Positions 1,325-50,157 of a stretch of 64,000 nucleotides of DNA are shown here, one piece after another (within the stretch, counting starts at the first letter, position 1; each line of letters opens with the position of its first letter). The DNA lies in the NCBI RefSeq assembly GCF_048128805.1, contig NC_136006.1:2192169-2256168 (forward strand), read 5' to 3'. The stretch is from Centroberyx gerrardi (taxonomy: Eukaryota; Chordata; Actinopteri; Beryciformes; Berycidae). The notes below the pieces were generated by a model that was not told where the DNA came from, made no database searches, and was given only the letters and a program-made list of their open reading frames with translations. The position numbers and the translations under genes were made by a program.

Positions 1325-2568
1325 TCATAGAAAAGGTCCCATTATGTTGGCCTCACAGGAGTTAGGCTGCAGTATCTGAAGTCTAACAATAAGATTAATA
1401 GATTTTCTAAACCAGGGGTAGAAAAAGGCATAGATCACAGGATTTAGACAGGAGTTAAAATACAACAGCCAGTCCGCAAAATATGAACCAATGATTTCAG
1501 TATCCTGGCCTGCAAGAGAGACACAGTAATATGGACAGAAACATATTAGAAACACAACTACGGCAATACCAAGAGTCCTGGCTGCTTTCATCTCAGATTT
1601 CTTAGCAGTTACAGTCACTGAACGCTGGAGTGTGACAGCCACAATGTGGGATCGCATGGCACGAGCCTGAGACACAGCCACCACAAATACTCTGATATAC
1701 AGAACTATGATGACAGTTATGGGAGCAGTAAAGTTAAAAACAAGGTCAACAACTCCTGCAATGTAGTTAATAACAACCACACACTCTCCAACGCAGGAAT
1801 TATGGCTGCCTGGATGCCTCAGTAAATCCTTTAGAAAGAGACTGCCAAAGAAAGCAGGACAGACCCAACACAGACAAACACAGATTTTAACTCTTGTCTG
1901 AGTGATTTTGGTGGGGTAACACAGAGGGTCACAAATAGCCACATAGCGGTCGACTGATATGAGCACCATGTTTCCTACTGAAGCAGAGGTAATGATAAGG
2001 GCCACAAATGAAGACAAAGCACACATGAAGTCCCCCAGAAACCAGCAGGCCCCTATGAATAAGATTTCAACCGGCATCAGCAGGAGGCCCACAAGGAGGT
2101 CTGAGACAGCCAGGGAGAGGAGGATGAGGTTGGTGGGGGTGTGGAGCTGCCTGGAGTGGGAGAATATCATTGTTTAACATATTGTTATCATCAATAGTAT
2201 CTTGGCTGTTGAAAAAAAATGTTATAGTATTACTTGCAGTAGTAGGAGTAGTAGTACAATAATATACTCATCAAAGGACTAGATGTGACAACTTCTATGT
2301 ACTAGCCCAAAGCCATTTCTTCTGGCATGTCTAACTGTTCATGTTTAGAAATATACAAATATTTTAGGCTATGCTGAGAAGTATATCTCTACTTGAAGTG
2401 GGAGATGGAGATGATGACCAGCAGGTTGAGAGCCACAGTGAGCAGAGAGATGGAGGACAGCAGAATGTAGAGGAGCATGACCTTGAAGAGAGGATGCTTC
2501 TGCTTCCTGCAGGAAGTGTTGAGGAGCTGTGGAAAGCAGAGTTCACCTCCTTCCAGGGTCTCCATCAT
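1325..2568 (-). CDS. TAAR-A, trace amine-associated receptor (two exons)
   Basis: Class A G protein-coupled receptor of the TAAR family, expected in olfactory neurons as an amine detector. Exon 1 is 2393-2568 and exon 2 is 1325-2150, with a GT-AG intron of 242 bases in intracellular loop 1. Together they give 333 codons with no break. Visible landmarks: N-glycosylation site Asn17, N1.50 at residue 48, D2.50 at 76, C3.25 at 102, DRY at 126-128, W4.50 at 154, P5.50 at 202, and the TAAR signature NSCLNPVIYAFFYPWF at 291-306. The aminergic Asp3.32 is replaced by Ala109, but Asp194 occupies 5.42 and Asp285 occupies 7.39. CWxP is CFCP. Amine binding through Asp5.42 is known for a clade of teleost TAARs. 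The first of two adjacent ATGs was chosen as start. Most like TAAR-C in extracellular loop 2 and intron sequence. The exact subfamily number cannot be given from sequence alone. Confidence 0.92.
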
Positions 2569-2589
2569 CAGAGAGAGAGGAGGAGAGGA

Positions 2590-2945
2590 GAAGCTGCTGA
2601 GGTCTGGCAGCTTTCTGACTAAAACTCTCTATCATACAGCTGATTTATCTCTCTCTTCTCTGTTTGTCACTCCCTTTCTCCCTCCCTCTCTTTCTCTCTT
2701 TCTTGGAGACTGATGTCCCTCCTTCCTCCCTCGCTATTTGCATCATCCTCTTCATCTCAATTGTCATCACTTTTTCTGCTGCCTTCCTCCTCTCTTCCCA
2801 ATCCCTCCTTCCTCCCTACTCATCTTTTCTCTCTCCCATTTCAGCCACTCCTCTCATCTGACTTCTCTTTCTCTTCCCTTCTTCTCTCTGATTCCTCTTC
2901 ATATCTCCTCTCCTCATTTCCCCCTCCTCTCTTTCCAACTCTGAT
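2590..2945. repeat. Polypurine/polypyrimidine tract upstream of TAAR-A
   Basis: Some 350 bases that are almost pure C/T on the plus strand, hence A/G on the gene's coding strand, begin about 20 bases upstream of the start codon. The tract is kept in all five units. It lies where the 5' UTR or promoter should be, but no TATA box is clear. The many small reading frames here are low-complexity artefacts. Confidence 0.7.
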
Positions 2946-3419
2946 GTAACAGGTTGTTTTCATACTAATGTGGATGACAGAATAATAATGGGAATTATTA
3001 TTATAGTCAAGAATGTGCAGTCCTATTCCTCACTGTCTAATCTGGGGGAAAGGAAACTAAACTTCTATAGCTGGCAGGGACTTCTGTTGCCATGCAGAAT
3101 ACATACAGGATTTGGACTTCAATATATCAGGAACATGTATTGCACATTCAGTCCCTTTCTTTATAGAACTACAATGCATTTCTACATTACTATTTTGTCA
3201 GTGCATGTACACAACCAATCCCCCCATACCCAGCTCATCGCTATTCCCTGACTACTACCCATTAGTATGATTGGTCAAAGTTACGTCCCATAGCAGTTCA
3301 GTCAGTGGTTTCAGACAGGCTCTCCTGGAGCGCTGTTACAGCGCAGACAGGGGAGACTGTCAAGACAGGCTACTCAAGTTTTTGACGTTTTTTTATGTGT
3401 ACCGTTGGGCTAGTTTCCA
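2946..3419. other. Upstream flank of TAAR-A
   Basis: AT-rich intergenic DNA conserved in the other units. It ends in a segment (about 3300-3360) with short self-complementary stretches around 'ggagcgctgttacagcgc'. No gene is seen. Confidence 0.5.
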
Positions 3420-4042
3420 TATAAACTGACTTACGGCAGACAGATTTGTTGGGGATGCTATTTTTCAAATTGTGGGTCCAATTAAACTCAGAAATGGGGT
3501 TTGCAGACTGCTCATGATGAGATGGCAGGTCACTTGGGTGTTAAGAAAATGTATGATAGGTATCTATGTCATTTCTACTGGCCCAGGCTAAAAAAGGACA
3601 TATCATCTTACTTCAAAACGTGTCATACCTGCCAACTCACCGGTAAACCTAACCACTCCATGAAGCCTTCCCCCTTGTATCCTATACCAGCAGTTAGTCA
3701 ACCCTTCGAACATTTGCTCATTGATTGTGTTGGCCCTTTGCCAAAGTCTAAAGCGGGTAGCGTGTACCTGTTGACTGTGATGGAGGGAACAAATATTACC
3801 TCACACACGTTTGCAGAAATTTAGAAACAACTTTGTGTTAAACATGCACAATCTACTGCTTACCATGCGCAAAGTCAGGGAACTATCGAGCGTTTCCATC
3901 AAACCCTGAAATCACTGCTTCGTGCTTATTGTACCAAACTTAACCATGATTGGGACGAAGAGTTGCCCTGGTTGATGTTGGCCGGCTAGAGAGGTGACGC
4001 AAGAAAGTACTGGCTTTAGCCCAAATGATGTCGTGTTTGGAC

Positions 4043-5423: not shown

Positions 5424-5477
5424 AAGATAAGATAAGATAAGATAGCACTTTATTAATCCCCTTGGGGAAATTCAGGG
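5424..5477. mobile_element. 54-base retroposon-tail insertion in RT (R1)
   Basis: A tiny insertion made of repeated AAGAT units and 'ctttattaatccccttgggg', like the 3' tail of a fish non-LTR retroposon. It is flanked by TGTAT (5419-5423 and 5478-5482). It falls just before the YVDD catalytic motif of the gypsy-like RT. It is also in R2, R3 and R4, so it predates the unit duplications. Confidence 0.6.
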
Positions 5478-10392: not shown

Positions 10393-11675
10393 TCATAGAA
10401 AAGGTCCCATTATGTTGGCCTCACAGGAGTTAGGCTGCAGTATCTGAAGTCTAACAATAAGATTAATAGATTTTCTAAACCAGGGGTAGAAAAAGGCATA
10501 GATCACAGGATTTAGACAGGAGTTAGAATACAACAGCCAGTCCGCAAAATTTGAACCAATGATTTCAGTATCCTGTCCTGCAAGAGAGACACAGTAATAT
10601 GGACAGAAACATATTAGAAACACAACTACGGCAATACCAAGAGTCCTGGCTGCTTTCATCTCAGATTTCTTAGCAGTTACAGTCACTGAACGCTGGAGTG
10701 TGACAGCCACAATGTGGGATCGCATGGCACGAGCCTGAGACACAGCCACCACGAATACTCTCATATACAGAACTATGATGACAGTAATGGGAGCAGTAAA
10801 GGTCACAACAAGGTCAGCAGCTCCTGCAATGTGGTTAATGACAAATACACACTCTCCATAGCAGGAATTATACCTGCCTGGTTGTGTCAGGTAATCTTTT
10901 AGAATCAAACTATTATAAAAAACAGAACAGACCCAACACAGACAAACACAGATTTTAACTCTTGTCTGAGTGATTTTGGTGGGGTAACGCAGAGGGTCAC
11001 AAATAGCCACATAGCGGTCGACTGATATGAGCACCATGTTTCCTACTGAAGCAGAGGTAATGATAAATTCTACAACGTAATATAGAGCACACATGAAGTC
11101 CCCCAGAAACCAGCAGGAGTCTATACGGAAAATTTTCACCGGCATCAGCAGGAGGCCCACAAGGAGGTCTGAGACAGCCAGGGAGAGGAGGAGGAGGTTG
11201 GTGGGGGTGTGGAGCTGCCTGGAGTGGGAGAATATTATCGTTTATTTTCATCATCAATAGTATCTTGGCGTTTGAAAAAAGCAGTTATAGTATTAGTTGC
11301 AGTAGTATGAGTAGTAGTCAAAGTAGCAGTATGACTAAAAACAAAACTAAAAGCTTTACCAAACAATAATATACTCATCACTGGACTAGATGTGACGACT
11401 TCTATGTACTAGCCCAAAGCCATTTCTTCTTGCATGTCTAACTGTTCATGTTTAGAAATATACAAATATTTTAGGCTATGCTGAGAAGTATATCTCTGCC
11501 TGTAGTGGGAAATGGAGATGATGACCAGCAGGTTGAGAGCCACAGTGAGAAGAGAGATGGAGGACAGCAGGATGTAGAGGAACATGGCCTCAGAGTGAGG
11601 ACGCATCTGCTTCCTGCAGGAAGTGTTGAGGAGCTGTGGAAAGCAGAGTTCACCTCCTTCCAGGGTCTCCATCAT
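10393..11675 (-). CDS. TAAR-B, amine receptor with Glu3.32 and a GC splice donor
   Basis: Two-exon TAAR, 333 codons: exon 1 11500-11675, exon 2 10393-11218. The intron of 281 bases ends in AG but begins GC (CAG|GCAGAG) where all the sister genes have GT. GC-AG introns are the commonest tolerated exception, so the gene is probably functional, but splicing may be less efficient. Read-through of exon 1 would stop about 30 codons later. Residue 109 (3.32) is Glu, Asp194 (5.42) and Asp285 (7.39) are kept, so three acids line the pocket. Loop 2 and the intron insertion of ~50 bases (about 11318-11368) match TAAR-E. The TAAR signature at 291-306 is intact. The start is set by homology with the four sister exons. 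Confidence 0.85.
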
Positions 11676-20450: not shown

Positions 20451-20714
20451 TCACTGGCAAAATAGTAACGTAGGGAAACCGTTTCCAAACAAATGCACTG
20501 TAGTTCTATAAAGAAAGGGACTGAATGTGCAGTACATGTTCCTGATATATCGAAGTCCAAATCCTGTATGTATTCTGCATGGCAACAGAAGTCCCTGCCA
20601 GCTATAGAAGTTTAGTTTCCTTTCCCCCAGACTAGACAGTGAGGAATAGGACTGCACATTCCTGACTATAATAATAATTTCCATTATTATTCTGTCATCC
20701 ACATTAGTATGAAA
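20451..20714. other. Upstream flank of TAAR-C
   Basis: Counterpart of the flank upstream of the other genes, with a short private insertion near 20471-20490 ('ggaaaccgtttccaaacaa', partly self-complementary). No gene is seen. Confidence 0.5.
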
Positions 20715-21088: not shown

Positions 21089-22332
21089 ATGATGGAGACC
21101 CTGGAAGGAGGTGAACTCTGCTTTCCACAGCTCCTCAACACTTCCTGCAGGAAGCAGAAGCATCCTCTCTTCAAGGCCATGCTCCTCTACATTCTGCTGT
21201 CCTCCATCTCTCTGCTCACCGTGTCTCTCAACCTGCTGGTCATCATCTCCATCTCCCACTTCAGGTAGAGATATACTTCTCAGCATAGCCTAAAATATGT
21301 GTATATTTCTAAACATGAACAGTTAGACATGCCAGAAGAAATGGCTTTGGGTTAGTTCATAGAAGTTGTCACATCTAGTCCTTTGATGAGTATATTATTG
21401 TACTACTACTCCTACTACTGCAAGTAATACTATAATGATTTTTTTCAACAGCCAAGATACTATTGATGATAACAATATGTTAAACAATGATATTCTCCCA
21501 CTCCAGGCAGCTCCACACCCCCACCAACCTCATCCTCCTCTCCCTGGCTGTCTCAGACCTCCTTGTGGGCCTCCTGCTGATGCCGGCTGAAATCCTCCTC
21601 ATAGAGGCCTGCTGGTTTCTGGGGGACTTCATGTGTGCTTTGTCTCCCTTTGTGGCCCTTATCATTACCTCTGCTTCAGTAGGAAACATGGTGCTCATAT
21701 CAGTCGACCGCTATGTGGCTATTTGTGACCCTCTGTGTTACCCCACCAAAATCACTCAGACAAGAGTTAAAATCTGTGTTTGTCTGTGTTGGGTCTGTCC
21801 TGCTTTCTTTGGCAGTCTCTTTCTAAAGGATTTACTGAGGCATCCAGGCAGCCATAATTCCTGCGTTGGAGAGTGTGTAATGGTAAGTAACTCCATTGTA
21901 GGAGTTGTTGACCTTGTTGTCACTTTTATTGCTCCCATTACTGTCATCATAGTTCTGTATATGAGAGTATTTGTGGTGGCTGTGTCTCAGGCTCGTGCCA
22001 TGCGATCCCACATTGTGGCTGTCACACTCCAGCGTTCAGTGACTGTAACTGCTAAGAAATCTGAAATGAAAGCAGCCAGGACTCTTGGTATTGCTGTAGT
22101 TGTGTTTCTAATATGTTTCTGTCCATATTACTGTGTCTCTCTTGCAGGCCAGGATACTGAAATCATTGGTTCATATTTTGCGGACTGGCTGTTGTATTTT
22201 AACTCCTGTCTAAATCCTGTGATCTATGCCTTTTTCTACCCCTGGTTTAGAAAATCTATTAATGTTATTGTTAGACTTCAGATACTGCAGCCTAACTCCT
22301 GTGAGGCCAACATAATGGGACCTTTTCTATGA
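21089..22332 (+). CDS. TAAR-C, trace amine-associated receptor (two exons)
   Basis: Exon 1 21089-21264 and exon 2 21507-22332 give 333 codons; the intron is GT-AG, 242 bases. Loop 2 (residues about 159-178) and intron are nearly those of TAAR-A. 3.32 is Ala109, 5.42 is Asp194, 7.39 is Asp285. The TAAR signature at 291-306 is intact. Private changes include Pro106 after C3.25 and a Met-Val-Ser-Asn-Ser stretch at the end of loop 2. The 3' UTR region carries an (AT)n run at about 22430-22442 shared only with TAAR-D; the other three genes keep a longer sequence there. A class A receptor in the plasma membrane or cilia of olfactory neurons is inferred from family. Confidence 0.92.
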
Positions 22333-30746: not shown

Positions 30747-31985
30747 ATGATGGAGACCCTGGAAGGAGGTGAACTCTGCTTTCCACAGCTCCTCAACACT
30801 TCCTGCAGGAAGCAGAAGCATCTTCGCTCCAAGGGCATGTTCCTCTACATCCTGCTGTCCTCCATCTCTCTGCTCACTGTGGCTCTCAACCTGCTGGTCA
30901 TCATCTCCATCTCCCACTTCAGGTAGAGATATACTTCTCAGCATAGCCTAAAATATGTTTATATTTCTAAATATGAACAGTTAGACATGCAAGAAGAAAT
31001 GGCTTTGGGCTAGTTCATAGAAGTCGTCACATCTAGTCCTTTGATGAGTATATTATTTTACTACTACTTCAACTACTGCAAGTAATACTATAACTACTTT
31101 TTTCAACAGCCAAGATACTATTGATGATGAAAATAAATGATAATATTCTCCCACTCCAGGCAGCTCCACACCCCCACCAACCTCCTCCTCCTCTCCCTGG
31201 CTGTCTCAGACCTCCTTGTGGGCCTCCTGCTGATGCCGGTTAAAATCTTATTCATAGAGGCCTGCTGGTTTCTGGGGGACTTCATGTGTGCTTTGTTTTC
31301 CTTTGTGGTCTTTATCATTACCTCTACTTCAGTAGGAAACATGGTGCTCATATCAGTCGACCGCTATGTGGCTATTTGTGACCCTCTGTGTTACCCCACC
31401 AAAATCACTCAGATAAGAGTTAAAATCTGTGTTTGTCTGTGTTGGGTCTGTTCTGTTTTTTATAATAGTCTGATTCTAAAAGATCACCTGACACAACCAG
31501 GCAGGTATAATTCCTGTGTTGGAGAGTGTGTGGTTGTTATTAAGTACATTGCAGGAGTTGTTGACCTTGTTTTTAACTTTACTGCTCCCATTACTGTCAT
31601 CATAGTTCTGTATATGAGAGTATTTGTGGTGGCTGTGTCTCAGGCTCGTGCCATGCGATCCCACATTGTGGCTGTCACACTCCAGCGTTCAGTGACTGTA
31701 ACTGCTAAGAAATCTGAGATGAAAGCAGCCAGGACTCTTGGTATTGCCGTAGTTGTGTTTCTAATGTGTTTCTGTCCATATTACTGTGTCTCTCTTGCAG
31801 GCCAGGATACTGAAATCATTGGTTCATATTTTGCGGACTGGCTGTTGTATTTTAACTCCTGTCTAAATCCTGTGATCTATGCCTTTTTCTACCCCTGGTT
31901 TAGAAAATCTATTCATCTTATTGTTAGACTTCAGATACTGCAGCCTAACTCCTGTGAGGCCAACATAATGGGACCTTTTCTATGA
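30747..31985 (+). CDS. TAAR-D, mosaic trace amine-associated receptor
   Basis: Exon 1 30747-30922, exon 2 31160-31985, GT-AG intron of 237 bases, 333 codons. 3.32 is Val109, 5.42 is Asp194, 7.39 is Asp285. The protein is a mosaic: residues about 155-178 of loop 2 (VFYNSLILKDHLTQPGRYNSC) follow TAAR-B and TAAR-E, while the next ~25 residues up to P5.50 follow TAAR-A. TM6 has FLMCFCPYYC, sharing Met with TAAR-E. The signature at 291-306 is intact. The 3' (AT)n run is shared with TAAR-C. Such patchwork is expected from gene conversion between units. Function as an amine receptor is inferred from family. Confidence 0.92.
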
Positions 31986-32911
31986 AGCAGGGATGTATTT
32001 GTTCATATTGTTGTTGAGTCGGTGAATTCAAAAGGTCAAAAGTCTGAATCATTAAAAAAACGTACTCCCGTTTTTATGTCATATATATATATATATATGA
32101 TTAATCAGTCTGTGTCTCCTTCTGCTGTTCATTGTCAGTACTTCCATCTAGAATATAACCTGCCATCCTTGCATTGTTCATGTTGTGGCCTTGACATTTA
32201 TGTAAACACATTAGACCTTTAGCTGACTGGTTCAGTGTCCTTTTCAAGGTCACTTCAACAGGACATGTGGCTTTAGATGGATATACTTTGGCTGTTAAAG
32301 GGATTGAACCTGTGATCTTTCAGTTACACACAGTCTCTCTTACACTGCCTTGGAATTTATGTACATAATATTCAGTTGTAGCTCAGGATGATTTCATTCT
32401 ATTTTTAGACGTTCTTTAATTGTTGTATTTTCCTCTGTGTTTTTGTTCCCATACTCCCAGTCCCAGTCATAAGCACTAAGAAATGTTTCAGTTTCATGTA
32501 AGATGTGAATTCGGTACAATATTAAAATATTGTTACATTACAAAGGTAATTGCAAAGACACAGATTTAGTTAGTCTTTTCTTTTACACCAGAATACCTTT
32601 TCTTGGTTGAAGGAAAACTTATTTGTTGTCCATTTTGTTGCCAACAGAGATGATCGGCCAGCTGGGCAACAGTTTCTGATAAACACACAGTGCTTTTGAT
32701 CACGTTTTATGAACAGTTTGAGATGGACCTTGGTATGGAGTCCCGAGTGTGCTGTAGATCAATTATCAGTAATTAATTAAAAGATAAATAACTAAAACAA
32801 AATTTTAAACCCATTAATTAAAATGCTTTTAAATGGCCATTTAATAAAACTATTCATAAAATGATTAATTAAATGGACAAATAAATGACTGAATTTATAA
32901 ATCAAATCGCA
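31986..32911. other. 3' flank of TAAR-D up to the ERV
   Basis: Near-identical to 22333-23258, including the SINE remnant. No gene is seen. Confidence 0.6.
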
Positions 32912-32915
32912 AAAC

Positions 32916-33351
32916 TGTAAATGCAAAAATTTACTTCACCCGTTGTGGGTCAAAATGAATAAGCAAGGTTCAAGAGTCTTCCGTGGATTCTTTATTCAGC
33001 CATGCATGGTTCAGTTCAGTGTTCCAGACAAGCAACAAAGAAGTGACAAAGAACGGAGTTCAGGATCCACTTATATAGGTTAAAGTAAACAAAACTATAA
33101 ATCTTGGCTCATAGCCAAACCCACTTGGTTCAAAACCAAACCCACTAGTTCGGACTTTTTACTGCGTGTCCACCTATAGAATCACTTAAAACCACACATA
33201 ACCATATATAGTTATCATGCATGCATCCAAGCACTGATTACATCATTGTAGTAAGCAGGACAAAAAACACTCCACTTTCCAGGACAAAGGAAAGCAAGAA
33301 CAGAGTGTACTATCCATATAAAAAAGCACATTATACATTTTATTTCTTACA
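32916..33351 (-). repeat. 3' LTR of the ERV
   Basis: 436 bases, TG...CA. In sense it carries TATATAAG and AATAAA as in the 5' LTR. Reads as identical to 41619-42054. Confidence 0.9.
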
Positions 33352-33363
33352 TTCCTCCCTTTT
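33352..33363 (-). promoter_or_regulatory. Polypurine tract of the ERV
   Basis: AAAAGGGAGGAA on the minus strand directly abuts the 3' LTR. This is the expected primer for plus-strand DNA synthesis. Confidence 0.85.
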
Positions 33364-33709
33364 GTCACAAGGTGACAACTAAGATTAAAATAAAATAATG
33401 AAAATGCAGCCTATGCTATATAGTACATCACTTAAACAGTGAGGAAAACATTTCTTCTAAAGTTACAAGCAAGCCATACCCAATGTAGATAAAAACAAAA
33501 AAAATAACTGAAAACAACATTTCATCTCAATACATTCAATTCCCTATTCAGTATGAGATTAACAAACATGTCCTATATTGTTTCTCCATAACATAACAAT
33601 ACAGGGTACATCACAGGATTAATCAAATATCATTCGTCTGGTCAGAGAAGTCACAAAGCTATATTCACATTTACGTCTTTGTATTTTCAGACACAATCAC
33701 TACTGAACT
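33364..33709. other. ERV region between env and polypurine tract
   Basis: 346 AT-rich bases without an open frame of note. No accessory gene is seen. Confidence 0.6.
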
Positions 33710-35383
33710 TTAGTGATCATCTTCATCACAGTAAGGAGGAATCCACTCTTCTGGTGGAGTTCGCATTTTAACATACTGTTGTACCGCACCACCAACCACA
33801 CCACCTAACCACCTGTATATGAGAGCACGCATACACGTCAAAGTACACGTACAAAAGCAAAGAACTATGCCTAACACAATTACAACTGGAATCAATAATT
33901 GTATCAACATGGCTCCCCAAGGTCCTAATCTATCAGTTAACCATACTTGGAAACTATAACCTGCTGATGCCGAGGGACCAAAAGCATCTCTGATTACTTC
34001 CAAAGCATCAATAACACCAGTAAGATTATCTGTATTATCGGGAATCAAAGTGAAACAAACATCACCAGTAAGATTTAAGGTAGTGCAAAGTCCTCCTGTC
34101 TTAGCCATAATATAATCCAATGCCATTTCATGTTTTAGTAGAGTAAGCCTATGTGATTTACTAGTCTCTTTAAGCCATTTAAACCCTGCAATAGTCTCAT
34201 TAGCAAAAGCAGACATAGTATAAGTAATGTTGTCAATGTGATCGGCTAGATAAGTGACACCATAGTGTGGAAAAAGGCCTATTGCCCACTTTTCACCCAA
34301 AGATATTCTCCAATGATATGATTCTATATTATGAAACTTAGCCAAATCACGTTTATGCAAACGTTCAGCATGGTGATCAACCTTAGAGTCAACTGGGACC
34401 ATATGTAAATTAGTAATGGTCAGATTTGCAAGAAAACAACAGCCTGACCATTTTGCAGGAAGAAACAAGTAAGCTTTAGTTCCACAAATCCAATACACAA
34501 AAGGAAAAGGAAGAAAACCTCCTTCCATAGAGTAGGGGAGTGATGGGCTTACCAAGACAGTATTATCTTCTATACGCATTTTAATATCTAGCAAACCTTT
34601 TTCAGTAGAATATGCTTGATAACTCCGACATCTAGATATACCCAAATACGAACCTGTACTATTTTGACAAACACAACCTACTTCACGTGCAGGTGGCAAC
34701 CGAGAGCGTTCAATAGGCACAACAGGATTTACGTCTTTTGATGGGGCTGGCCACAAATTAGCACAGCACCAATCAAGGCAAGCTTCTAACCTAGGCACAT
34801 TAACATCCCTTGCCCAATATTTGTGTTCCTTAACACATTCAGAATAATTCATAGACCTGTTTGAACGATCCATAATAATATACACAGCAAACAATTCACA
34901 AGGAAAAGGATGAGCTTCAAGGTCAAAAGGACGATTAGCAACATGAGTCGTCTTATATGCAGCAATAACAGATCGATTCGGATAAACTTGGTCTCTCATA
35001 TACATAAGGAAATTGTACCAATGATTATTAGCAGGATTATATGGATCTGTCAAATCAGAGGTAGCATCAAATCCATACGGCTTCCAATTCAGTATAGCCC
35101 GCTTCTTTCTTTTCAATGAGGATACCGTGTCTTTCCAAATTGTCAGTCTGTCACTGTGTTCCATGTCTGCGTCTTCAATATCAGTGTGCATGTCGGTGTT
35201 GGGAGTAAGTGAGCTCGTGCGCTCTGACGACTTCCGCTCTCCAGGATCATCTGGAGGTGTGCTCCATGGTTGCACAACGAGGAGGGTGATGATTACACCC
35301 ACGAAGAATGCCGCCATCTGGACTCTATGACAGGCATCTTCTCCTAAGCCCCACAGACCAGGCTTACGCCGGGGTGGAGTCAT
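33710..35383 (-). CDS. env: ERV envelope glycoprotein (env)
   Basis: An intact 557-codon frame whose start overlaps the end of the pol frame by 20 bases, as expected for an env made from a spliced mRNA. Residues 23-37 are hydrophobic (signal peptide or anchor). Basic cleavage-like sites are at 91-95 (KRKKR) and 341-345 (RLHKR). The part after 345 looks like the transmembrane subunit, with possible heptads at about 385-425, a cysteine pair at 433 and 443, and a membrane segment at about 489-515 followed by Cys-rich sequence and a ~40-residue tail. Several N-x-S/T sites are present. The usual CX6CC of gamma-type Env is not seen. Assignment rests on position and architecture; the closest viral relative is not identified. 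Whether it is expressed is unknown. Confidence 0.85.
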   Translation of the reverse strand: MTPPRRKPGLWGLGEDACHRVQMAAFFVGVIITLLVVQPWSTPPDDPGERKSSERTSSLTPNTDMHTDIEDADMEHSDRLTIWKDTVSSLKRKKRAILNWKPYGFDATSDLTDPYNPANNHWYNFLMYMRDQVYPNRSVIAAYKTTHVANRPFDLEAHPFPCELFAVYIIMDRSNRSMNYSECVKEHKYWARDVNVPRLEACLDWCCANLWPAPSKDVNPVVPIERSRLPPAREVGCVCQNSTGSYLGISRCRSYQAYSTEKGLLDIKMRIEDNTVLVSPSLPYSMEGGFLPFPFVYWICGTKAYLFLPAKWSGCCFLANLTITNLHMVPVDSKVDHHAERLHKRDLAKFHNIESYHWRISLGEKWAIGLFPHYGVTYLADHIDNITYTMSAFANETIAGFKWLKETSKSHRLTLLKHEMALDYIMAKTGGLCTTLNLTGDVCFTLIPDNTDNLTGVIDALEVIRDAFGPSASAGYSFQVWLTDRLGPWGAMLIQLLIPVVIVLGIVLCFCTCTLTCMRALIYRWLGGVVGGAVQQYVKMRTPPEEWIPPYCDEDDH

Positions 35384-36299
35384 CTCGAGGGAAGGATTTA
35401 CACTGGGATGCGTGAATCCAGGTGTCTCTCTCAGCTATACGGACTGCAGTTGGTGTAGTCAACAACACCTGGAATGGTCCAGTCCAACGAGGTTGATGCC
35501 AGTACTTCCTTCTCAGATCCTTTACCACCACCCAGTCCCCTGGTTGGATAGTATGGAGTTGTGCTGTGATGGGTTCAGGAAGAGCAGCTTTCACCTTCGG
35601 AAAGATAACCTTCAGAACATTGTTAAGGGCACAACAATACTCCATCATATCATCATCTAGACCAACCAGAGTCAGCCTATTCTGGGGAAAAGGTGTATTA
35701 GTCATACGCATGGGACGCCCCGTAAGTACTTCATAAGGGGAAAGTCCAGTGGTTTGATGTGGACGACCCCTCATGTACATCAGCGCAAGAGGTAAGACCT
35801 CAACCCATGTTAGCTGCGTTTCAGCTATCAACTTTGTGAGTTTTCCTTTCAAGGTCTGATTCGCTCTTTCCACTGCACCTCCACTAGCTGGATGGTAGGC
35901 ACAGTGTGTCTTCAAATTTATTCGCAAACTCTCCGAAAGGCTCTGAATCACATTATTTACAAAATGAGAGCCATTGTCACTAGTCAATTTTGATGGGAGC
36001 CCCCATCTTGGAATGATTTCTCTCAGCAGAGCCTTTGCTACCGAAACAGCTGTAGCATGTCTGCAAGGAAAACATTCGATCCATTTAGAAAACATATCTA
36101 CCACCACTAGGCAGTATTTATATCCCCTACATGGAGTGAGTTCGATGAAATCCATCATCAAATGTTCAAAAGGGCCCTCTGGCCTTGGATGCGCAGAGAG
36201 AGGCATGTCTGTTCCTCTACCTACATTATTTGTAGCACAAATGACACATTTCTTACAAAAATTTTCAGCAAATGTAGAAAAACCTTTGGCGCATACCAA
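35364..36299 (-). CDS. pol: ERV integrase (3' part of pol, out of frame)
   Basis: Open frame for most of the retroviral integrase. It starts at the Cys pair of the zinc-binding domain (FCKKCVIC) and has the catalytic DD35E triad: Asp in LMMDFIE, Asp in TSDNGSHF, and Glu exactly 36 residues on in AVERANQT. The C-terminal DNA-binding domain follows (GDWVVVKD, WTGPFQVLL). It is shifted relative to the upstream pol frame, so it would not be made as part of Pol from this copy. The given start at 36299 is only the frame limit, not a true initiation site. Confidence 0.85.
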   Translation of the reverse strand: MVCAKGFSTFAENFCKKCVICATNNVGRGTDMPLSAHPRPEGPFEHLMMDFIELTPCRGYKYCLVVVDMFSKWIECFPCRHATAVSVAKALLREIIPRWGLPSKLTSDNGSHFVNNVIQSLSESLRINLKTHCAYHPASGGAVERANQTLKGKLTKLIAETQLTWVEVLPLALMYMRGRPHQTTGLSPYEVLTGRPMRMTNTPFPQNRLTLVGLDDDMMEYCCALNNVLKVIFPKVKAALPEPITAQLHTIQPGDWVVVKDLRRKYWHQPRWTGPFQVLLTTPTAVRIAERDTWIHASQCKSFPRDDSTPA

Positions 36300-38926
36300 A
36301 ATTTATTTACAGTGTCTAACATTCCTCTTTTTGATACATGGTCAGAACCATGAGACAATTTTGCCAGGAAAGGGAATGTAGCACGTGGCAAAACAGGCAA
36401 CCCATCCGGGCTAACCCAAACCCCTGAATCAAGGGGTTTGCACCCGTTCCTCGACCAGGAAGAAACTTCCTCCTTATCGGCTCCTCCCTGCACAAGAGAA
36501 ACGTCATGGAAAGAGAAAAAATCATCCTGGGAAGATAGATGCATCTGCAAAGTTGGGGAGACAGGTGAAAGAGCAGCAGCTTTAGCAGCAGCGTCAGCAA
36601 CAGCATTTCCCTGTGAAACTGGATCCACATTACTTGTATGAGCCTGACATTTACACACAGCAACAGAATTTGGAAGAAGAAGGGCTGACAGAAGATTAAC
36701 AATGAGAGATCTATGAGCAATAGGTTTCCCATTGGAAGCTATGAACCCACGGTTGCTCCAAAGAGCATGAAAATTATGACACACATTAAAAGCATACTGA
36801 GAATCAGTATAGACTGTGATATCCTTACCAGCACCTAGAATAAAAGCACGAGTTAAGGCAAAAAGTTCTGCTGCTTGCGCAGAAAGATGTCCCGGAAGCT
36901 TAGCACTTTCAACAACATCATGTGAAGTGCAAACAGCATAAGCAACACAAGGAATACCCTCTGCCCTTTGTGCTGAACCATCTACAAAGAAAACACAGTC
37001 AGGATTAGTCAATGGTGTATCAAACAAAGCATCGCGAGGTTTCATAGCAATGTCAATCACTTGCAAACAGCAGTGGGGTTCACCATCTTCTGCTGTAGGA
37101 AGAAGTGTAGAAGGGTTAAGAACAGTACAACGCTTCAGAGTGACATGAGACATAGTGAGTAGAACATTCTGCCAATGCAGCATTTTCGCAGGAGTCAAAT
37201 GAGCAGTCTTAGCCTGTAGGATAAGAGAATGAACAGCATGTGGAACATGAACAGTTAAAGGACACATAGCAACAAGATCGGCAGTTGCAAGAACAGCTTC
37301 AGTAGCTGCAGCAACAGACCTGAGGCACGAAACCATTGCTCTCTCAGTTGTAGACAGATGTTTAGAAAAATAACCAACAGGACGTTGCTTATCACCATGG
37401 GACTGAGTTAAAACAGCTGATATAAACCCATCTCGTTCAGAGACAAACAGATTAAAGGGTTTACTATGGTCAGGGAGTCCTAAACAAGGAGAACTAGAAA
37501 GAGCCAATTTCAAGTCAGTAAATGCTTTGTCAGCTTCAGTAGTCCAAGTCAAGGAGTCAGTCATGGCCAGATGTTTACCACCGAATGTGATATCATATAG
37601 AGGTTGAGATATCTCTGCATAGTCACGTATCCATGGGCGGCAATAGCCTACAAGACCCAAAAACGACATCATTTGCTGTTTAGTTTGAGGTTTTGGTACC
37701 TCCAAAATTGCAGTAACGCGTTCGGGACCGAGTTTACGACCTTCAGGTGTGACTATATGTCCTAAATACCGCACGGACTGTGAAACCAGCTGGAGTTTGG
37801 TTTTTGAGACCTTGTGTCCGTTCTCTGCTAAATAACAGAGAAGGGAGACAGTGTCTTTTTTGCAGGCCTGCTCAGAAGTAGAACACAACAAAAGATCATC
37901 CACATACTGTATCAATGTACTACCACAAGGAGCCTCCCAGCCTGAGAGGTTCTCAGCTACAGCCAAAGCAAACAAAGTGGGGCTGCTTGAGAAACCCTGA
38001 GGCATACGAGTCCATGTGTAGCGTTTACCATTGAAAGTGAAAGCAAACCAGAACTGGGAGTCAGGATGCACAGGAATGCTGAAAAAAGCATTAGCCAGAT
38101 CAATCACAGTAAACCAACAAGAATTAGATGGGACTTGAGACAACAGAGTTACCACATTTGGTACTGTGGGCGCTGGATGTTGCACAGCGTCATTTACAGC
38201 TCTCAAATCCTGAACAGGTCTCCAACCACCATTAGGCTTCCTAATGGGCAGAAGAGGGGTATTACAAGGAGAGTGAGGACATTCCACAATGGCACCCTGT
38301 TTTTGTAATGACTCAATAACAGGAGCAATTCCCTCCACAGCCTCTAGGCTGAGGGGATATTGCCTCTTACATGGTCTGAAAGAGGATTTAGGTTCTACCA
38401 CTATAGGTGTTGCAGTTTTCATACTACCACAATCAAATCTACTACTAGCCCATAGTGTAGGCGGAACCATAGAGATCATATTCTCCTCTTCAGTTGTTAA
38501 AGGCATATGAACAAAAGAAGTGGTATCTGGTTCTTGATTAGAAAGAACATCCTCATCTACATGCTCTGTCAAATCCCAAAAATAACCCTCATGTGTTGTC
38601 ATAGTGAAAATACCTAGCGTCTTAGAGGAAAGAATGATGCCTTCCGGACTGCAGTACATATTTATTCCCAAAGCACACATTAGATCACGCCCTAACAAAT
38701 TCACTGGACAAAAATCTGTCAACAAGAACGGATGATCTCCTATGTAATCACCATGAGTGACAGAAAGTGGTTCAGAAATTGGTTCTAACACCGGGACTCC
38801 TGATGAGCCAACTGTTTTAAGAAATTTTGTCGATTTAGGCGCATTTGGGAGTAATTTGGACTGCACAACGGAAACATCAGCACCAGAATCAACCAAAAAG
38901 GGCACTACTACATTTCCTACTTTCAA
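36221..38926 (-). pseudogene. pol: ERV pro-pol: protease, RT, RNase H, frame-broken
   Basis: A long open frame that continues the gag frame after its UAG (44 codons between the stop and 38926, no further stop). Order: aspartic protease with FLVDSGADVS (38860-38900), RT with YVDD at 37895-37906, connection domain, RNase H with FFVDGSAQ and YTDSQYA (about 36770-37000), and the His part of the integrase zinc domain. The frame ends at 36221 in unrelated residues because a one-base shift occurs around 36285-36300. The rest of integrase lies in the next frame. Apart from this lesion the protein looks intact. Expression in a related active copy would be as a Gag-Pro-Pol fusion by amber suppression. 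Confidence 0.88.
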
Positions 38927-39055
38927 ACTTAATTTAGCTGCTTTCTGTTTCTGTGGGTCTAATTTAGTATACTGACCATAAGTTATAATAGGGCCAGTGT
39001 CTGTTTGTCCATCTGAACTATCTTGTTGATCTATCTGACCTGCCCCCGCTGTCTC

Positions 39056-40744
39056 CTATTGGTTAGCTGGCTGAAATCCTGGAGCATTCACAGATAGGCT
39101 TGAGGGGGGTGCATGTGGCCAGGATCCATCAGGTGCATTCTCATGTCTTTGTATGCCAGACCTGTGTTCTGATGAACAATCACGAGCCATATGACCATAC
39201 CCCCCACAGTTGAAACACCTTAGACGTTGCTGGTTGTAAAACTGTGTGGATGGCTGTCTTCCATAGCCTCTTCCTCCACGTCCTCGTCCTCTTCCTCGTC
39301 CTCTGCGCATTTCATTGCCCCAAGTTCCCGTCTGTTGATAAAACATTAACTGTGCAGTTTGGATTTTCTTACTGTGTCTTTGCTCGATGTCAGTCTGGTT
39401 CCTTTCAGCATGAAGGACATGAGCCCAGACTTCGCTGAGAGGTTTGGTTTCCCAGGCGATGCACGTGGCCACGGTTTGGCTCTTCAGCATTGGATGAAGG
39501 CCTTGTATCAACGCATTCTTCAGCAGACTATTATAGGCATCATTATCCTGGTCAACTCCTGAATGGGCAGCAAACACAGATTCCATTCTAGCACGATAAT
39601 CAGTAGCAGACTCACCATCATTTTGCTTGGTCCTGTAGATGTCGGGCCAACTGGTACGTAAGGGATATGCTGTCTTCACAGCAGCATAGAGCTCATCCAT
39701 CTGATCTCTGTAGCCGTGACTGCCTGGATCATGATTTATGTCCCAACTGCCTGGCTTGATGTTCGGCCATCTCAACAGAAAACACCTGCGACATACTGCT
39801 TCCACCTCTGCCAATGTAGGATTATACATTATCAACAACTGTTGCATTGCGATCACCCATTTCTCACCTCCAGTTTTATTGGGGTCCGGCAATTCTGTGG
39901 CAACTTCCTTCAGTTCATCAGGTTGCCATGGCCTGTAGACCAAGACATGCGACTGCCAAAGACCTTTTCCATCATCTGGCTGTGGATTCGGATATATCAT
40001 CATGGGCATCTGATTCACTGTCTCTGTCTGTAGGTTTGCTGCCATACTACGAGTCTGTGGGCGGTGTGTAACAGGAGTACCAGAGGCGGAACCTACATTT
40101 GAAGGAGGAGTTAAAAACCCCAATGAAGCCTCCTTCTCCTTGAGCTCAGACCCTCCCACAGTTTGTAGTGTTGGATAAACATTAGATGGTTGAGGTGGAG
40201 CCTGAGATGTAGGAGGGGCTGAAACTGCCTTCTTCAGAACCGCCCCCTCATCTTCATCATCCTCTTCGTCACTCTCGTCATCACGCATTCCTGAAGGTGG
40301 AGCTATGCGAGAAAGAGCATAGGGGGGAGGCAGATCCCTCTCTCTGTCCCTGAGTTTCTTCATCTTTTTCTTTCTTCTAACCCTTTCTTCTGTTTCCTTA
40401 CATATCTCTGCTGTTCCTTTTGAGAGCATTATATTAGCTGCGGACTTTACTGCCTTAGCCTCTGCTTCTCGCTCCCACTTTTGGAAAGCATGCCAATTTA
40501 CCTTCTTTCTACTCTTCTCACTCAATCTCATCTTTTCCTTCTCTTCTTTTTCTTCCAACATAACCCTACATCTGGTTAAACAATTTACACTCAAAGTACC
40601 TCTCATGGGAAAAATACCTTCAGTAACATAGTGCCAGAGCGGAACCTCATCAACCACACTTTTACCCCATTTGTCTGCCATCACTTTTACAGGACCTACT
40701 AAGGGGTCTGTAAGTGGCTCCAATTTGTCCAATGTATTTCCCAT
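39056..40744 (-). CDS. gag: ERV Gag polyprotein
   Basis: 562 codons. It begins MGNT, a myristoylation-type start suited to membrane targeting. A Lys/Glu-rich, probably coiled region is at about 65-135, then a Pro-rich acidic segment, then the capsid region (about 270-470), an Arg-Gly repeat (RGRGRGRGRGG, about 478-490) and one zinc knuckle CX2CX4HX4C at 510-523. It ends at UAG (39058-39056), after which the same frame stays open into protease. The start at 40744 is the first ATG that gives the MGN context. Confidence 0.88.
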   Translation of the reverse strand: MGNTLDKLEPLTDPLVGPVKVMADKWGKSVVDEVPLWHYVTEGIFPMRGTLSVNCLTRCRVMLEEKEEKEKMRLSEKSRKKVNWHAFQKWEREAEAKAVKSAANIMLSKGTAEICKETEERVRRKKKMKKLRDRERDLPPPYALSRIAPPSGMRDDESDEEDDEDEGAVLKKAVSAPPTSQAPPQPSNVYPTLQTVGGSELKEKEASLGFLTPPSNVGSASGTPVTHRPQTRSMAANLQTETVNQMPMMIYPNPQPDDGKGLWQSHVLVYRPWQPDELKEVATELPDPNKTGGEKWVIAMQQLLIMYNPTLAEVEAVCRRCFLLRWPNIKPGSWDINHDPGSHGYRDQMDELYAAVKTAYPLRTSWPDIYRTKQNDGESATDYRARMESVFAAHSGVDQDNDAYNSLLKNALIQGLHPMLKSQTVATCIAWETKPLSEVWAHVLHAERNQTDIEQRHSKKIQTAQLMFYQQTGTWGNEMRRGRGRGRGRGGRGYGRQPSTQFYNQQRLRCFNCGGYGHMARDCSSEHRSGIQRHENAPDGSWPHAPPSSLSVNAPGFQPANQ

Positions 40745-41597
40745 CTTTCACCCAGTTGTGGTTGCCTTCCCTAATTTTTTTTTTCTTCACACAATTAAAT
40801 CCCCCTAAACAATAACTATCGCAAAAACTAATAATCCCTATATTACAATCAATAATTAGTGTCTGCAGTTCACAAATTTTAAAATACTTCTTCCCAACAT
40901 ACACTCTTAAGTCCTATACCTTGACCACACGTTGTATAACTCCATTCACACAATGCCAATGGAATGTAGCATGATATCAGCCAGGTAGTTTGTACGACAC
41001 TTTCGTTCAGAGCAACGTACCCCTTGTGTGGATAAATACCCACAGGACACTGATATCACCACTTCATTCCCATCCACTCACAATATATCACAAACAATAT
41101 CTCCCCTTAAAACGTTTTTTTTTTTTTTTTTTCGTTCTTATGGGTTTTTTTTTTTTTTTTTTTTAATTTTTCACTCTGGATCCCTTTCTACCCCCTGGGC
41201 TATGTCTCTTTCTACCCCCTGGGCTGTGTCCCTGACAATCTTCCTTATCTAATAATGGCAACCCCCCTGAGGCCTAACTATGCTCCCTGAGCTAACATTT
41301 TACGCCCTCATTAACTACCTAGGTTTCTTTTCCTGTTTCTCTCTCTCTACAACTATGTAAAGACCTCCCTGAGGAAAAATTTTTACTCCCTCCCTGAGGA
41401 AGAGAAAAAAAATTCACAGAAACTCACCACTTGCTCTTTTAAAACGGATGGACGACCCACTGAACACCGCCCGCGCTGATTTCAGGCGGGATCCAGGCCC
41501 CCCTTTTTCTGGAGCGGAATTCTCCCTGAGTCTCCTAGGGACTCCTGTGCACAGTTGAACCCTCAGTCAGTCTCAGACGGCGCTCAGTGATGTGTCC
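40745..41597 (-). other. ERV leader between primer site and gag
   Basis: An 853-base untranslated leader, probably holding the packaging signal. It has two A homopolymers on the sense strand (41115-41132, 18 bases; 41145-41164, 20 bases), a 23-base direct repeat (41184-41206 and 41208-41230, one difference) and repeated CTCAGGGAG motifs. No open frame of note. Confidence 0.6.
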
Positions 41598-41615
41598 ATC
41601 CCATCCTCGTCGCCA
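41598..41615 (-). promoter_or_regulatory. ERV primer binding site, tRNA-Ser type
   Basis: Eighteen bases beginning TGGCGACGAGG on the sense strand, three bases after the 5' LTR. They are complementary to the 3' end of vertebrate tRNA-Ser(GCT) including CCA, as far as I recall that tRNA. Confidence 0.75.
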
Positions 41616-41618
41616 AAC

Positions 41619-42054
41619 TGTAAATGCAAAAATTTACTTCACCCGTTGTGGGTCAAAATGAATAAGCAAGGTTCAAGAGTCTTCCGTGGATTCTTTATTC
41701 AGCCATGCATGGTTCAGTTCAGTGTTCCAGACAAGCAACAAAGAAGTGACAAAGAACGGAGTTCAGGATCCACTTATATAGGTTAAAGTAAACAAAACTA
41801 TAAATCTTGGCTCATAGCCAAACCCACTTGGTTCAAAACCAAACCCACTAGTTCGGACTTTTTACTGCGTGTCCACCTATAGAATCACTTAAAACCACAC
41901 ATAACCATATATAGTTATCATGCATGCATCCAAGCACTGATTACATCATTGTAGTAAGCAGGACAAAAAACACTCCACTTTCCAGGACAAAGGAAAGCAA
42001 GAACAGAGTGTACTATCCATATAAAAAAGCACATTATACATTTTATTTCTTACA
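41619..42054 (-). repeat. 5' LTR of the ERV
   Basis: 436 bases. On the sense strand it has a TATA box TATATAAG at 41780-41773 and AATAAA at 41699-41694, giving a short R region between them. This is the promoter that would drive the provirus, transcribing towards TAAR-D, against its direction. Confidence 0.9.
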
Positions 42055-48160: not shown

Positions 48161-48504
48161 AACGTCAAAAACTTTGGACGGTGAGTAGCCTGTCTTGACA
48201 GTCTCCCCTGTCTGCGCTGTAACAGCGCTCCAGGAGAGCCTGTCTGAAACCACTGACTGAACTGCTATAGGAAATGCATTGTAGTTCTATAAAGAAAGGG
48301 ACTGAATGTGCAGTACATGTCCCTGATATATCGAAATCCAAATCCTGTATGTATTCTGCATGGCAACGGAAGTCCCTGCCAGCTATAGAAGTTTAGTTTC
48401 CTTTCCCCCAGACTAGACAGTGAGGAATAAGACTGCACATTCTTGACTATAATAATAATTCCCATTATTATTCTGTCATCCACATTAGTATGAAAACAAC
48501 CTGT
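48161..48504. other. Upstream flank of TAAR-E
   Basis: Conserved unit flank; lacks a segment present upstream of TAAR-A near 3190-3290. No gene is seen. Confidence 0.5.
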
Positions 48505-48800
48505 TACATCAGAGTTGGAAAGGGAGGAGGGGGAAATGAGGAGAGGAGAGATGAAGAGGAATCAGAGAGAAGGGAAGAGAAAGAGAAGTCAGATGGGAGG
48601 AGTGGCTGAAATGGGAGAGAGAAAAGATGAGTAGGGAGGAAGGAGGGATTGGGAAGAGAGGAGGAAGGCAGCAGAAAAAGTGATGACGATTGAGATGAAG
48701 AGGATGATGCAAATAGCAAGGGAGGTAGGCAGTCTCCAAGAAAGAGAGAATGAGAGAGGGAGGGAGGAAGGGAGTGACAAACAGAGAAGAGAGAGATAAA
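48505..48800. repeat. Polypurine tract upstream of TAAR-E
   Basis: A/G-rich on the coding strand, ending about 75 bases before the start codon. Confidence 0.7.
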
Positions 48801-48875
48801 TCAGCTGTATGATAGAGAGCTTTGGTCAGAAAGCTGCCAGACCTCAGCAGCTTCTCCTCTCCTCCTCTCTCTCTG

Positions 48876-50157
48876 ATGATGGAGACCCTGGAAGGAGGTG
48901 AACTCTGCTTTCCACAGCTCCTCAACACTTCCTGCAGGAAGCAGAAGCATCCTTTCTTCAAGGTCATGCTCCTCTACATTCTGCTGTCCTCCATCTCTCT
49001 GTTCACCGTGTCTCTCAACCTGCTGGTCATCATCTCCATCTCCCACTACAGGTAGAGATATACTTCTTAGCATAGCCTAAAATATTTGTATATTTCTAAA
49101 CATGAACAGTTAGACATGCAAGAAGAAATGGCTTTGGGCTAGTACATAGAAGTCGTCACATCTAGTCCTTTGATGAGTATATTATTGTTTGGTAAAGCTT
49201 TTAATTTTGTTTTTAGTCATACTGCTACTTTGACTACTACTCATACTACTGCAACTAATACTATAACTACTTTTTTCAACAGCAAGATACTATTGATGAT
49301 GAAAATAAACGATAATATTCTTCCACTCCAGGCAGCTCCACACCCCCACCAACCTCCTCCTCCTCTCCCTGGCTGTCTCAGACCTCCTTGTGGGCCTCCT
49401 GCTGATGCCGGTGAAAATGTTCCGTATAGACTCCTGCTGGTTTCTGGGGGACTTCATGTGTGCTCTATATTACGTTGTAGAATTTATCATTACCTCTGCT
49501 TCAGTAGGAAACATGGTGCTCATATCAGTCGACCGCTATGTGGCTATTTGTGACCCTCTGTGTTACCCCACCAAAATCACTCAGACAAGAGTTAAAATCT
49601 GTGTTTGTCTGTGTTGGGTCTGTTCTGTTTTTTATAATAGTTTGATTCTAAAAGATTACCTGAGAGAACCAGGCAGGTATAATTCCTGCTATGGAGAGTG
49701 TGTATTTGTCATTAACCACATTGCAGGAGCTGCTGACCTTGTTGTGACCTTTACTGCTCCCATTACTGTCATCATAGTTCTGTATATAAGAGTATTTGTG
49801 GTGGCTGTGTCTCAGGCTCGTGCCATGCGATCCCACATTGTGGCTGTCACACTCCAGCGTTCAGTGACTGTAACTGCTAAGAAATCTGAGATGAAAGCAG
49901 CCAGGACTCTTGGTATTGTCGTAGTTGTGTTTCTAATGTGTTTCTGTCCACATTACTGTGTCTCTCTTGCAGGCCAGTATACTGAAATCAATGCTTTATA
50001 TTTTGTGGTCTGGCTGTTGTATTTTAACTCCTGTCTAAATCCTGTGATCTATGCCTTTTTCTACCCCTGGTTTAGAAAATCTATTAATCTTATTGTTAGA
50101 CTTCAGATACTGCAGCCTAACTCCTGTGAGGCCAACATAATGGGACCTTTTCTATGA
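48876..50157 (+). CDS. TAAR-E, amine receptor with Glu3.32 and divergent TM6-TM7
   Basis: Exon 1 48876-49051 and exon 2 49332-50157 give 333 codons; the 280-base intron is GT-AG and carries the ~50-base insertion shared with TAAR-B. 3.32 is Glu109 and 5.42 is Asp194, but 7.39 is Val285 where the four sisters have Asp. The loop 3 region is GQYTEINALYFVVW, different from the GQDTEIIGSYFADW type of the others, and TM6 reads FLMCFCPHYC. The rest, including the signature at 291-306, is standard. It is the outermost gene of the right half-array and may be the most diverged in ligand choice. Confidence 0.92.

What the first reader, a model, noticed from the sequence alone, without database searches (positions are those of the whole stretch)
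1325..50157. Acidic ligand-pocket residues reshuffled between sister receptors
Every copy has Asp at 5.42 and none has the classical Asp3.32. At 3.32 the residues are Ala (A, C), Val (D) and Glu (B, E). At 7.39 four have Asp and TAAR-E has Val. Two acids facing the pocket are known to allow diamine binding in a zebrafish TAAR. Glu3.32 plus Asp5.42 in B and E is therefore a candidate diamine or polyamine pocket, distinct from A, C and D.
Basis: partly seen in the sequence, partly recalled or inferred. Interest (0 to 1): 0.75.

Follow-up and report, generated by a model that had tools for sequence, protein, structure and literature searches.

The report
Fish amine receptors with reshuffled pockets
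Five neighbouring smell-receptor genes of a redfish keep one fixed amine-holding acid while the charges on the opposite wall of the pocket keep changing, which is a variant of a known family; whether the glutamate variants sense diamines needs a bench test.

Summary
The residue calls are correct. The window holds five two-exon TAAR genes with open frames, in a genome that very probably is Centroberyx gerrardi. Residues at 2.61/3.32/5.42/7.39: A and C = E/A/D/D, B = K/E/D/D, D = K/V/D/D, E = K/E/D/V.

Asp5.42 without Asp3.32 is the published rule for teleost clade III. Published TAAR13c Glu3.32 nearly abolishes cadaverine response, but loss of Asp6.58 restores it; these receptors naturally have Gly6.58.

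Among 219 near relatives (from capped lists), Glu3.32 is rare (7) but recurrent (5 changes on a tree). 7.39, 3.32 and 2.61 rank 1st, 2nd and 7th of 333 columns for changes; 5.42 changes 4 times (median 14). Val7.39 is the commonest state, Asp7.39 the oddity (4 of 219).

The genes look mosaic: B and E share codons 59-203 without a synonymous difference but differ in exon 1. B has a GC splice donor. No ligand was tested.

The parts
1325..2150 (-). TAAR-A exon 2 (end of ICL1 to C-terminus), E2.61 A3.32 D5.42 D7.39
2393..2568 (-). TAAR-A exon 1 (N-terminus, TM1); intron 2151-2392, GT donor
10393..11218 (-). TAAR-B exon 2, K2.61 E3.32 D5.42 D7.39
11500..11675 (-). TAAR-B exon 1; intron 11219-11499 begins GC (AG|GCAGAG) instead of GT
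11068..11070 (-). TAAR-B codon 3.32, GAA (Glu)
21089..21264 (+). TAAR-C exon 1; intron 21265-21506, GT donor
21507..22332 (+). TAAR-C exon 2, E2.61 A3.32 D5.42 D7.39
30747..30922 (+). TAAR-D exon 1; intron 30923-31159, GT donor
31160..31985 (+). TAAR-D exon 2, K2.61 V3.32 D5.42 D7.39; alternating A/C-like and B/E-like stretches
48876..49051 (+). TAAR-E exon 1; intron 49052-49331, GT donor
49332..50157 (+). TAAR-E exon 2, K2.61 E3.32 D5.42 V7.39
49480..49482 (+). TAAR-E codon 3.32, GAA (Glu)

Best explanation
These are five tandem olfactory trace amine-associated receptors of the clade III type. Asp5.42 is the fixed amine anchor (inferred from published mutagenesis of clade III receptors). The facing wall, positions 2.61, 3.32 and 7.39, is where sister receptors are retuned: charges there are switched more often than at nearly all other columns of the protein. 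Exchange of exon segments among neighbouring copies spreads the combinations, so B and E share a Glu3.32 cassette but differ in exon 1 and in TM6-TM7. In B and E, Glu3.32 probably accepts a second cation or polar group of an amine held by Asp5.42, helped by the lack of the Asp6.58 gate and tempered by Lys2.61. Shown: residues, open frames, mosaic pattern, lability. Inferred: splicing, ligand class, geometry, role of Lys2.61, segment exchange as the cause of the mosaic.
For: Nearest solved relatives are TAAR13c, 13a, 13e and 13d for A and 13c, 13e, 13a, 13d for B. 5.42 is acidic in 218 of 219 relatives and needs 4 changes on the tree, against 64 for 7.39 (rank 1 of 333), 63 for 3.32 (rank 2) and 57 for 2.61 (rank 7), median 14. 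Entropy without a tree ranks 3.32 2nd (219 rows) or 3rd (114 rows of the first search), 7.39 23rd or 19th, 2.61 24th or 25th. A recalled list of 30 pocket positions changes more than the other positions of residues 26-316 (median 26 against 13, one-sided p = 0.004). B and E have zero synonymous and four replacement differences over codons 59-203 but dS 0.13 in exon 1; longest B=E run p = 0.029 after correction for 10 pairs. 6.58 is Gly in all five and in 206 of 219, Asp in none of the 219, and D112E/D279N TAAR13c works (PMC6018111, passages).
Against: No ligand data and no usable model: both AlphaFold2 runs were of low confidence (mean pLDDT 53.0 and 48.3). D112E alone nearly kills TAAR13c, and D3.32E nearly silences mouse TAAR9 (PMC8546428, passages). 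The tree is a quick one; its rows are the best 120 of each of three searches, all with Glu3.32 queries; change counts do not tell gain from loss and are inflated where mosaic genes break tree logic. By entropy 7.39 and 2.61 are only in the top 8%. Summed pN/pS is 0.83 and 7 of 10 pairs have dN/dS below 1, so fast change could partly be relaxed constraint. Eight of 10 pairs show no significant run in the exchange test.
Confidence: 0.65

Rival explanations
1. B and E are dedicated diamine or polyamine receptors with Glu3.32 and Asp5.42 holding the two amines, functionally distinct from A, C and D.
For: Two acids at 3.32 and 5.42 mark the zebrafish diamine TAARs (PMC4695389, section 5). Natural Gly6.58 matches the gate-less background in which Glu3.32 TAAR13c is active.
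Against: Of the four sites A, B and C have three acids, D and E two. Lys2.61 sits on the same wall in B and E. Glu3.32 alone is a poor substitute in TAAR13c. Other pocket residues differ from TAAR13c, for example Phe6.48 and Tyr6.51 in B against Trp6.48 and Phe6.51.
Confidence: 0.28
2. Glu3.32 is locked in a salt bridge with Lys2.61, so B and E work as single-acid Asp5.42 monoamine receptors and the Glu/Lys swap is an internal charge compensation.
For: Lys2.61 accompanies Glu3.32 in both B and E, and a relative on a separate branch, P0083, has Arg2.61 with Glu3.32 and Asp7.39. Among 219 relatives Glu3.32 and acidic 7.39 co-occur (counts 2,5,2,210; Fisher p = 0.005), and basic 2.61 with acidic 7.39 (2,17,2,198; p = 0.039) (four tables tested, not corrected for that or for relatedness).
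Against: Basic 2.61 and Glu3.32 are not significantly associated (2,17,5,195; p = 0.12). Five of 7 Glu3.32 relatives have Gln, Glu or Ala at 2.61. D has Lys2.61 with Val3.32. No geometry could be computed.
Confidence: 0.3
3. The pocket changes are neutral drift in redundant, partly decaying duplicates.
For: Summed pN/pS 0.83. B has a GC donor, so one of the two Glu3.32 genes may splice poorly.
Against: All five have open frames over both exons and keep D2.50, DRY, C3.25 and the TM7 motif. Asp5.42 is kept in all. Changes are more frequent at pocket positions than elsewhere. A database protein, P0001, is of the B type with 4 differences and includes exon 1.
Confidence: 0.15

Closest known systems
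Teleost clade III TAARs (zebrafish TAAR16c/e/f; Li 2015, PMC4695389)
   Same: Asp5.42 present, Asp3.32 absent; TAAR sequence type
   Different: Glu3.32 in two copies, Asp7.39 in four, Lys2.61 in three (7.39 and 2.61 of the zebrafish TAAR16s were not looked up); two-exon genes, whereas zebrafish TAARs are described as single-exon (PMC4415300, passage)
Zebrafish TAAR13c and TAAR13/14 diamine receptors
   Same: Acid at both 3.32 and 5.42 in B and E; TAAR13s are the nearest solved structures
   Different: Glu instead of Asp at 3.32; Gly instead of TAAR13c's Asp at 6.58; Phe instead of Trp at 6.48
TAAR13c D112E and D112E/D279N laboratory mutants (PMC4914996, PMC6018111; passages)
   Same: B and E carry naturally Glu3.32 + Asp5.42 without Asp6.58, as in the functional double mutant
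   Different: Rest of the pocket, including Lys2.61; Gly rather than Asn at 6.58; B also has Asp6.60 and Asp7.39
Rodent TAAR7 paralogues with Glu3.32 (mTAAR7a/d, rTAAR7a/c; PMC4695389, PMC8546428)
   Same: Glu3.32; 3.32 reported under positive selection in TAAR7 (PMC4786312, passage)
   Different: Mammalian; not marked as carrying Asp5.42 in the figure legend read

Membership tests
TAAR family | Rhodopsin-type 7TM domain (PF00001) | tested here: met
   All five proteins, 148.7-155.9 bits against cut-off 30.5
TAAR family | TM7 fingerprint NSxxNPxx[YH]xxxYxWF (motif recalled, not from a call) | tested here: met
   NSCLNPVIYAFFYPWF in all five
TAAR family | Nearest solved relatives are TAARs | tested here: met
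   TAAR13 then TAAR1 chains on top for A and B; C, D and E were not searched
Teleost clade III TAAR | Asp5.42 present, Asp3.32 lost | tested here: met
   5.42 = D in 5 of 5; 3.32 = A, E, A, V, E
Teleost clade III TAAR | Placement in the clade III branch with reference clades I and II | not tested
   Trees held only near relatives; no reference members of other clades were included
Diamine TAAR (TAAR13/14 type) | Asp at both 3.32 and 5.42 | tested here: not met
   B and E have Glu3.32, the others no acid at 3.32
Diamine TAAR (TAAR13/14 type) | Activation by molecules with two cations | not testable with these tools
   Needs a cell assay
TAAR13c-type external gate | Asp6.58 | tested here: not met
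   Gly in all five

The most novel reading that the evidence does not exclude
In beryciform and percomorph clade III TAARs the amine anchor Asp5.42 is frozen while 2.61/3.32/7.39 form a rapidly switching, segment-exchanged charge code. Acid at 3.32 is toggled many times, in both directions, rather than lost once, and Glu3.32 evolved several times in a gate-less (Gly6.58) background that makes it a working second amine site. (Direction of change was not determined here.)
Probability: 0.35. Interest if true: 0.7.

Novelty: new variant of a known kind. Interest (0 to 1): 0.45.

Why it matters
In zebrafish 91 of 112 TAARs carry Asp5.42, and most TAARs of several other fish carry it without Asp3.32 (PMC4695389), yet few have known ligands. 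If the anchor is fixed and the facing wall is the tuner, ligand class might be predicted from a few residues, and the five near-identical natural receptors here (16-45 differences of 333) form a ready-made comparison set. The published two-step history (gain of Asp5.42, then loss of Asp3.32) would need extending to repeated switching. Eyun 2016 (PMC4786312, passages) already reported positive selection at 3.32 and 5.42 in mammalian TAAR7/8, so fast change at 3.32 as such is not new; a frozen 5.42 with a mobile opposite wall is the contrasting pattern here.

Tried and rejected
Structure-based test of the Lys2.61/Glu3.32/Asp7.39 geometry: two AlphaFold2 jobs with 79 close relatives each gave mean pLDDT 53.0 (P0001) and 48.3 (P0002); not interpreted, and no fold search was run on them. 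No coordinate files were in the script box, so no distances and no docking.

A whole-genome count of TAARs with Glu3.32 was not obtained: the protein search of the own genome did not complete. The Pfam search of the genome scored 147 of 1331 candidates; I did not sort those hits and used the call only for the window's place. In 200 kb of flanking DNA (90 kb before, 110 kb after, as 10 kb pieces scanned apart) tblastn found one further TAAR; a gene cut by a piece border could have been missed.

Codon-model selection tests were not run: with five mosaic genes they would mislead. The excess of replacements in E's codons 251-333 (9 against 0 synonymous versus A) has about a 0.10 chance under neutrality by a simple (193/249)^9 estimate of mine, so I make no claim. 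Charge coupling between 2.61, 3.32 and 7.39 was looked for and is weak.

Considered and rejected: that Glu is misaligned; that these are not TAARs; that the copies lack a first exon. One paper search on salt bridges at 2.61/7.39 and one on gene conversion in fish TAARs gave listings with nothing I could use; one for TAAR13c cryo-EM papers found none.
Full report
What is there. The window lies on contig C10 of a 778.9 Mb genome at 2192169-2256168. The contig is 32,697,592 bases long, the same length as the longest contig listed for Centroberyx gerrardi proteins in the homologue search, so the species is very probably Centroberyx gerrardi. They match Pfam 7tm_1. The nearest solved relatives are TAAR13c, 13a, 13e and 13d for A and 13c, 13e, 13a, 13d for B; C, D and E were not searched. 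Each gene has an exon 1 of 176 bases encoding the N-terminus and TM1, across an intron of 237-281 bp; joined, all five give uninterrupted 333-residue receptors that differ from each other at 16-45 residues. The intron sits in the first intracellular loop, as in most of the spliced cichlid TAARs, which are about 80% of that repertoire (PMC4415300, passages); that paper gives phase 0, whereas my reading splits the Lys/Arg codon after its second base, because the AG of the acceptor requires it. B differs at the donor: AG|GCAGAG, where the other four have AG|GTAGAG. GC donors exist but are uncommon (recalled), so B's splicing is uncertain. A database protein, P0001, named as Centroberyx gerrardi, is of the B type with 4 differences and includes exon 1.

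The residues. Position 2.61 is in the recalled list of class A pocket positions. Formal charge over 2.61, 3.32, 5.42 and 7.39 is -3 (A, C), -2 (B), -1 (D, E), so B and E are not the most acidic pockets, and every copy has at least two acids among the four sites.

How unusual it is. I surveyed 219 relatives: 233 distinct proteins from three searches, each listing the best 120 of 4330, 3782 and 5016 matches, less 14 longer than 345 residues. All three queries carry Glu3.32, so Glu3.32 may be enriched and distant TAARs are not seen. At 3.32: D 59, S 52, V 36, N 18, A 13, T 11, E 7, G 7, C 5, P 4, I 3, F 2, L 2. At 5.42: D 214, E 4, V 1. At 7.39: V 99, I 66, L 23, M 7, D 4 and others. At 2.61: E 121, Q 45, R 11, G 9, K 8 and others. 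Acid at both 3.32 and 5.42 occurs in 65 of 219, 58 of them Asp/Asp, and at least two acids among the four sites in 146 of 219, so two acids are common here; only the Glu form is rare. Asp7.39, not Val7.39, is the oddity. On a quick IQ-TREE tree of 224 rows, built with these four columns left out, the fewest changes per column are 64 at 7.39 (rank 1 of 333), 63 at 3.32 (rank 2), 57 at 2.61 (rank 7) and 4 at 5.42, median 14. Acid at 3.32 needs 23 changes and Glu3.32 five; such counts cannot tell gain from loss. An earlier tree of 119 rows gave 28 changes at 3.32, 31 at 7.39, 27 at 2.61 and 4 at 5.42. Entropy, which needs no tree, ranks 3.32 2nd, 7.39 23rd and 2.61 24th of 333; in the 114 rows kept from the first search alone 3rd, 19th and 25th, so the ranks of 7.39 and 2.61 are softer than that of 3.32. 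The neighbours of the Glu3.32 rows from Myripristis, Scomber and Enoplosus mostly have Asp3.32, suggesting Asp to Glu; those of B and E have Val, Ala or Gly, and GAA is two changes away from GCC or GTC, so B and E may have regained an acid, or inherited an older cassette. The TM3 stretch LYYVVEFIITS of B is identical in Myripristis P0034 and P0068, which allows the second reading.

How the combinations arose. B and E have no synonymous and four replacement differences over codons 59-203, where the other nine pairs have dS 0.07-0.17; in exon 1 the same pair has dS 0.13. The longest run of agreeing polymorphic sites for B and E has permutation p = 0.0029, 0.029 after correction for 10 pairs; A and C 0.0001, 0.001 corrected; the other eight pairs are not significant after correction. 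With few exceptions D groups with A and C at informative sites 510-568 (from the start codon of A), with B and E at 569-764, and with A again at 790-834. Divergence between unlike copies in the 400-800 stretch reaches 0.10-0.125, against at most 0.054 in the 600 bases before the start codon and at most 0.015 at 1400-1800 downstream; the intron stretch (200-400) reaches 0.092, the 1200-1400 stretch has a local patch of up to 0.099, and the part from 1800 on is gap-rich and not informative. This is what segment exchange between neighbours could leave. From codon 204 on A-D are nearly uniform; E differs at 9-11 replacements and 0-1 synonymous sites in codons 251-333, suggestive but not significant. 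So 'reshuffled' is apt, probably by exchange of exon segments as well as by point change.

What it most likely does. Li and co-workers (PMC4695389; abstract and section 5 parts 1-2 of 3 read, plus passages) showed that zebrafish clade III TAARs use Asp5.42 for amines, that 84 of 91 Asp5.42 receptors of zebrafish lack Asp3.32, that receptors with both acids take dications, and that no ligand was known for Glu3.32 TAARs, then named from rodent TAAR7s. The sister set here is therefore ordinary in having Asp5.42 without Asp3.32. For Glu3.32 the direct precedents are: TAAR13c D112E, cadaverine EC50 15 to 1000 uM, putrescine lost (PMC4914996, passages with Table 1); D112E/D279N not significantly different from wild type for cadaverine and comparable for putrescine (PMC6018111, passages), although docking in that paper still placed Glu112 about 9 A from cadaverine, so the rescue need not mean that Glu3.32 binds; lamprey TAAR365 D3.32E active with less potency and mouse TAAR9 D3.32E nearly dead (PMC8546428, abstract and passages). 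As 6.58 is Gly in B and E, and in 206 of 219 relatives with Asp in none, the natural context resembles the working double mutant. Against it stands Lys2.61, which may pair with Glu3.32 or Asp7.39. A relative on a separate branch, P0083, combines Arg2.61, Glu3.32 and Asp7.39, but the association of basic 2.61 with Glu3.32 is not significant (p = 0.12) and that with acidic 7.39 is weak (p = 0.039, uncorrected). My judgement: amine receptors anchored at Asp5.42, with the facing wall as tuner; diamine detection by B and E possible (about 0.28 as a dedicated, distinguishing function), not shown.

What is known already. Positive selection at 3.32 and 5.42 in mammalian TAAR7/8 is reported (PMC4786312, passages). 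Repeated change at 3.32 against a fixed 5.42 within teleost clade III, and natural Glu3.32 with Asp5.42, were not seen in the listings and passages reached through the searches; that library holds only PubMed Central papers under CC0, CC BY and CC BY-SA, and figures and supplements were not read. A 2009 paper by Hussain and colleagues on positive selection in a teleost TAAR clade is recalled and was not seen. Guo and colleagues (PMC8890504; abstract and section 8 read) discuss alternative histories for Asp5.42 and loss of Asp3.32, from which repeated toggling would be a further departure. PMC8745718 and PMC6895882 were seen in passages only.

Limits. No expression, ligand or structural data; low-confidence models; no genome-wide count, since the protein search of the own genome did not complete. 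A sixth TAAR outside the window, C10:2177891-2178721 minus, reads Q2.61 V3.32 D5.42 I7.39 by eye from its translation, with residues common in the survey.

Noticed in passing
32907-41909: A provirus-like element between TAAR-D and TAAR-E: 300-base direct repeats that are 100% identical (32907-33206 and 41610-41909) flank long minus-strand frames that by eye resemble gag (39056-40747), pol (36221-39055 and 35364-36302) and env (33710-35434). Identical ends point to a recent insertion. Described only; no family search was made.
   Followed up: partly
11494-11501: Splice donor of TAAR-B is GC where the four sister genes have GT; this gene is one of the two Glu3.32 copies.
   Followed up: partly
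L016 (G000:C10:2177891-2178721): A sixth TAAR of the cluster on the minus strand, about 13 kb before the window, with an exon 1; the only one found in the 200 kb of flanking DNA scanned in 10 kb pieces.
   Followed up: partly
18659-20611: Overlapping long minus-strand frames that by eye resemble a non-LTR retroelement reverse transcriptase, between TAAR-B and TAAR-C.
   Followed up: no
49332-50157: TAAR-E has Tyr6.60 and His6.51 where A-D have Asp6.60 and Tyr6.51.
   Followed up: no
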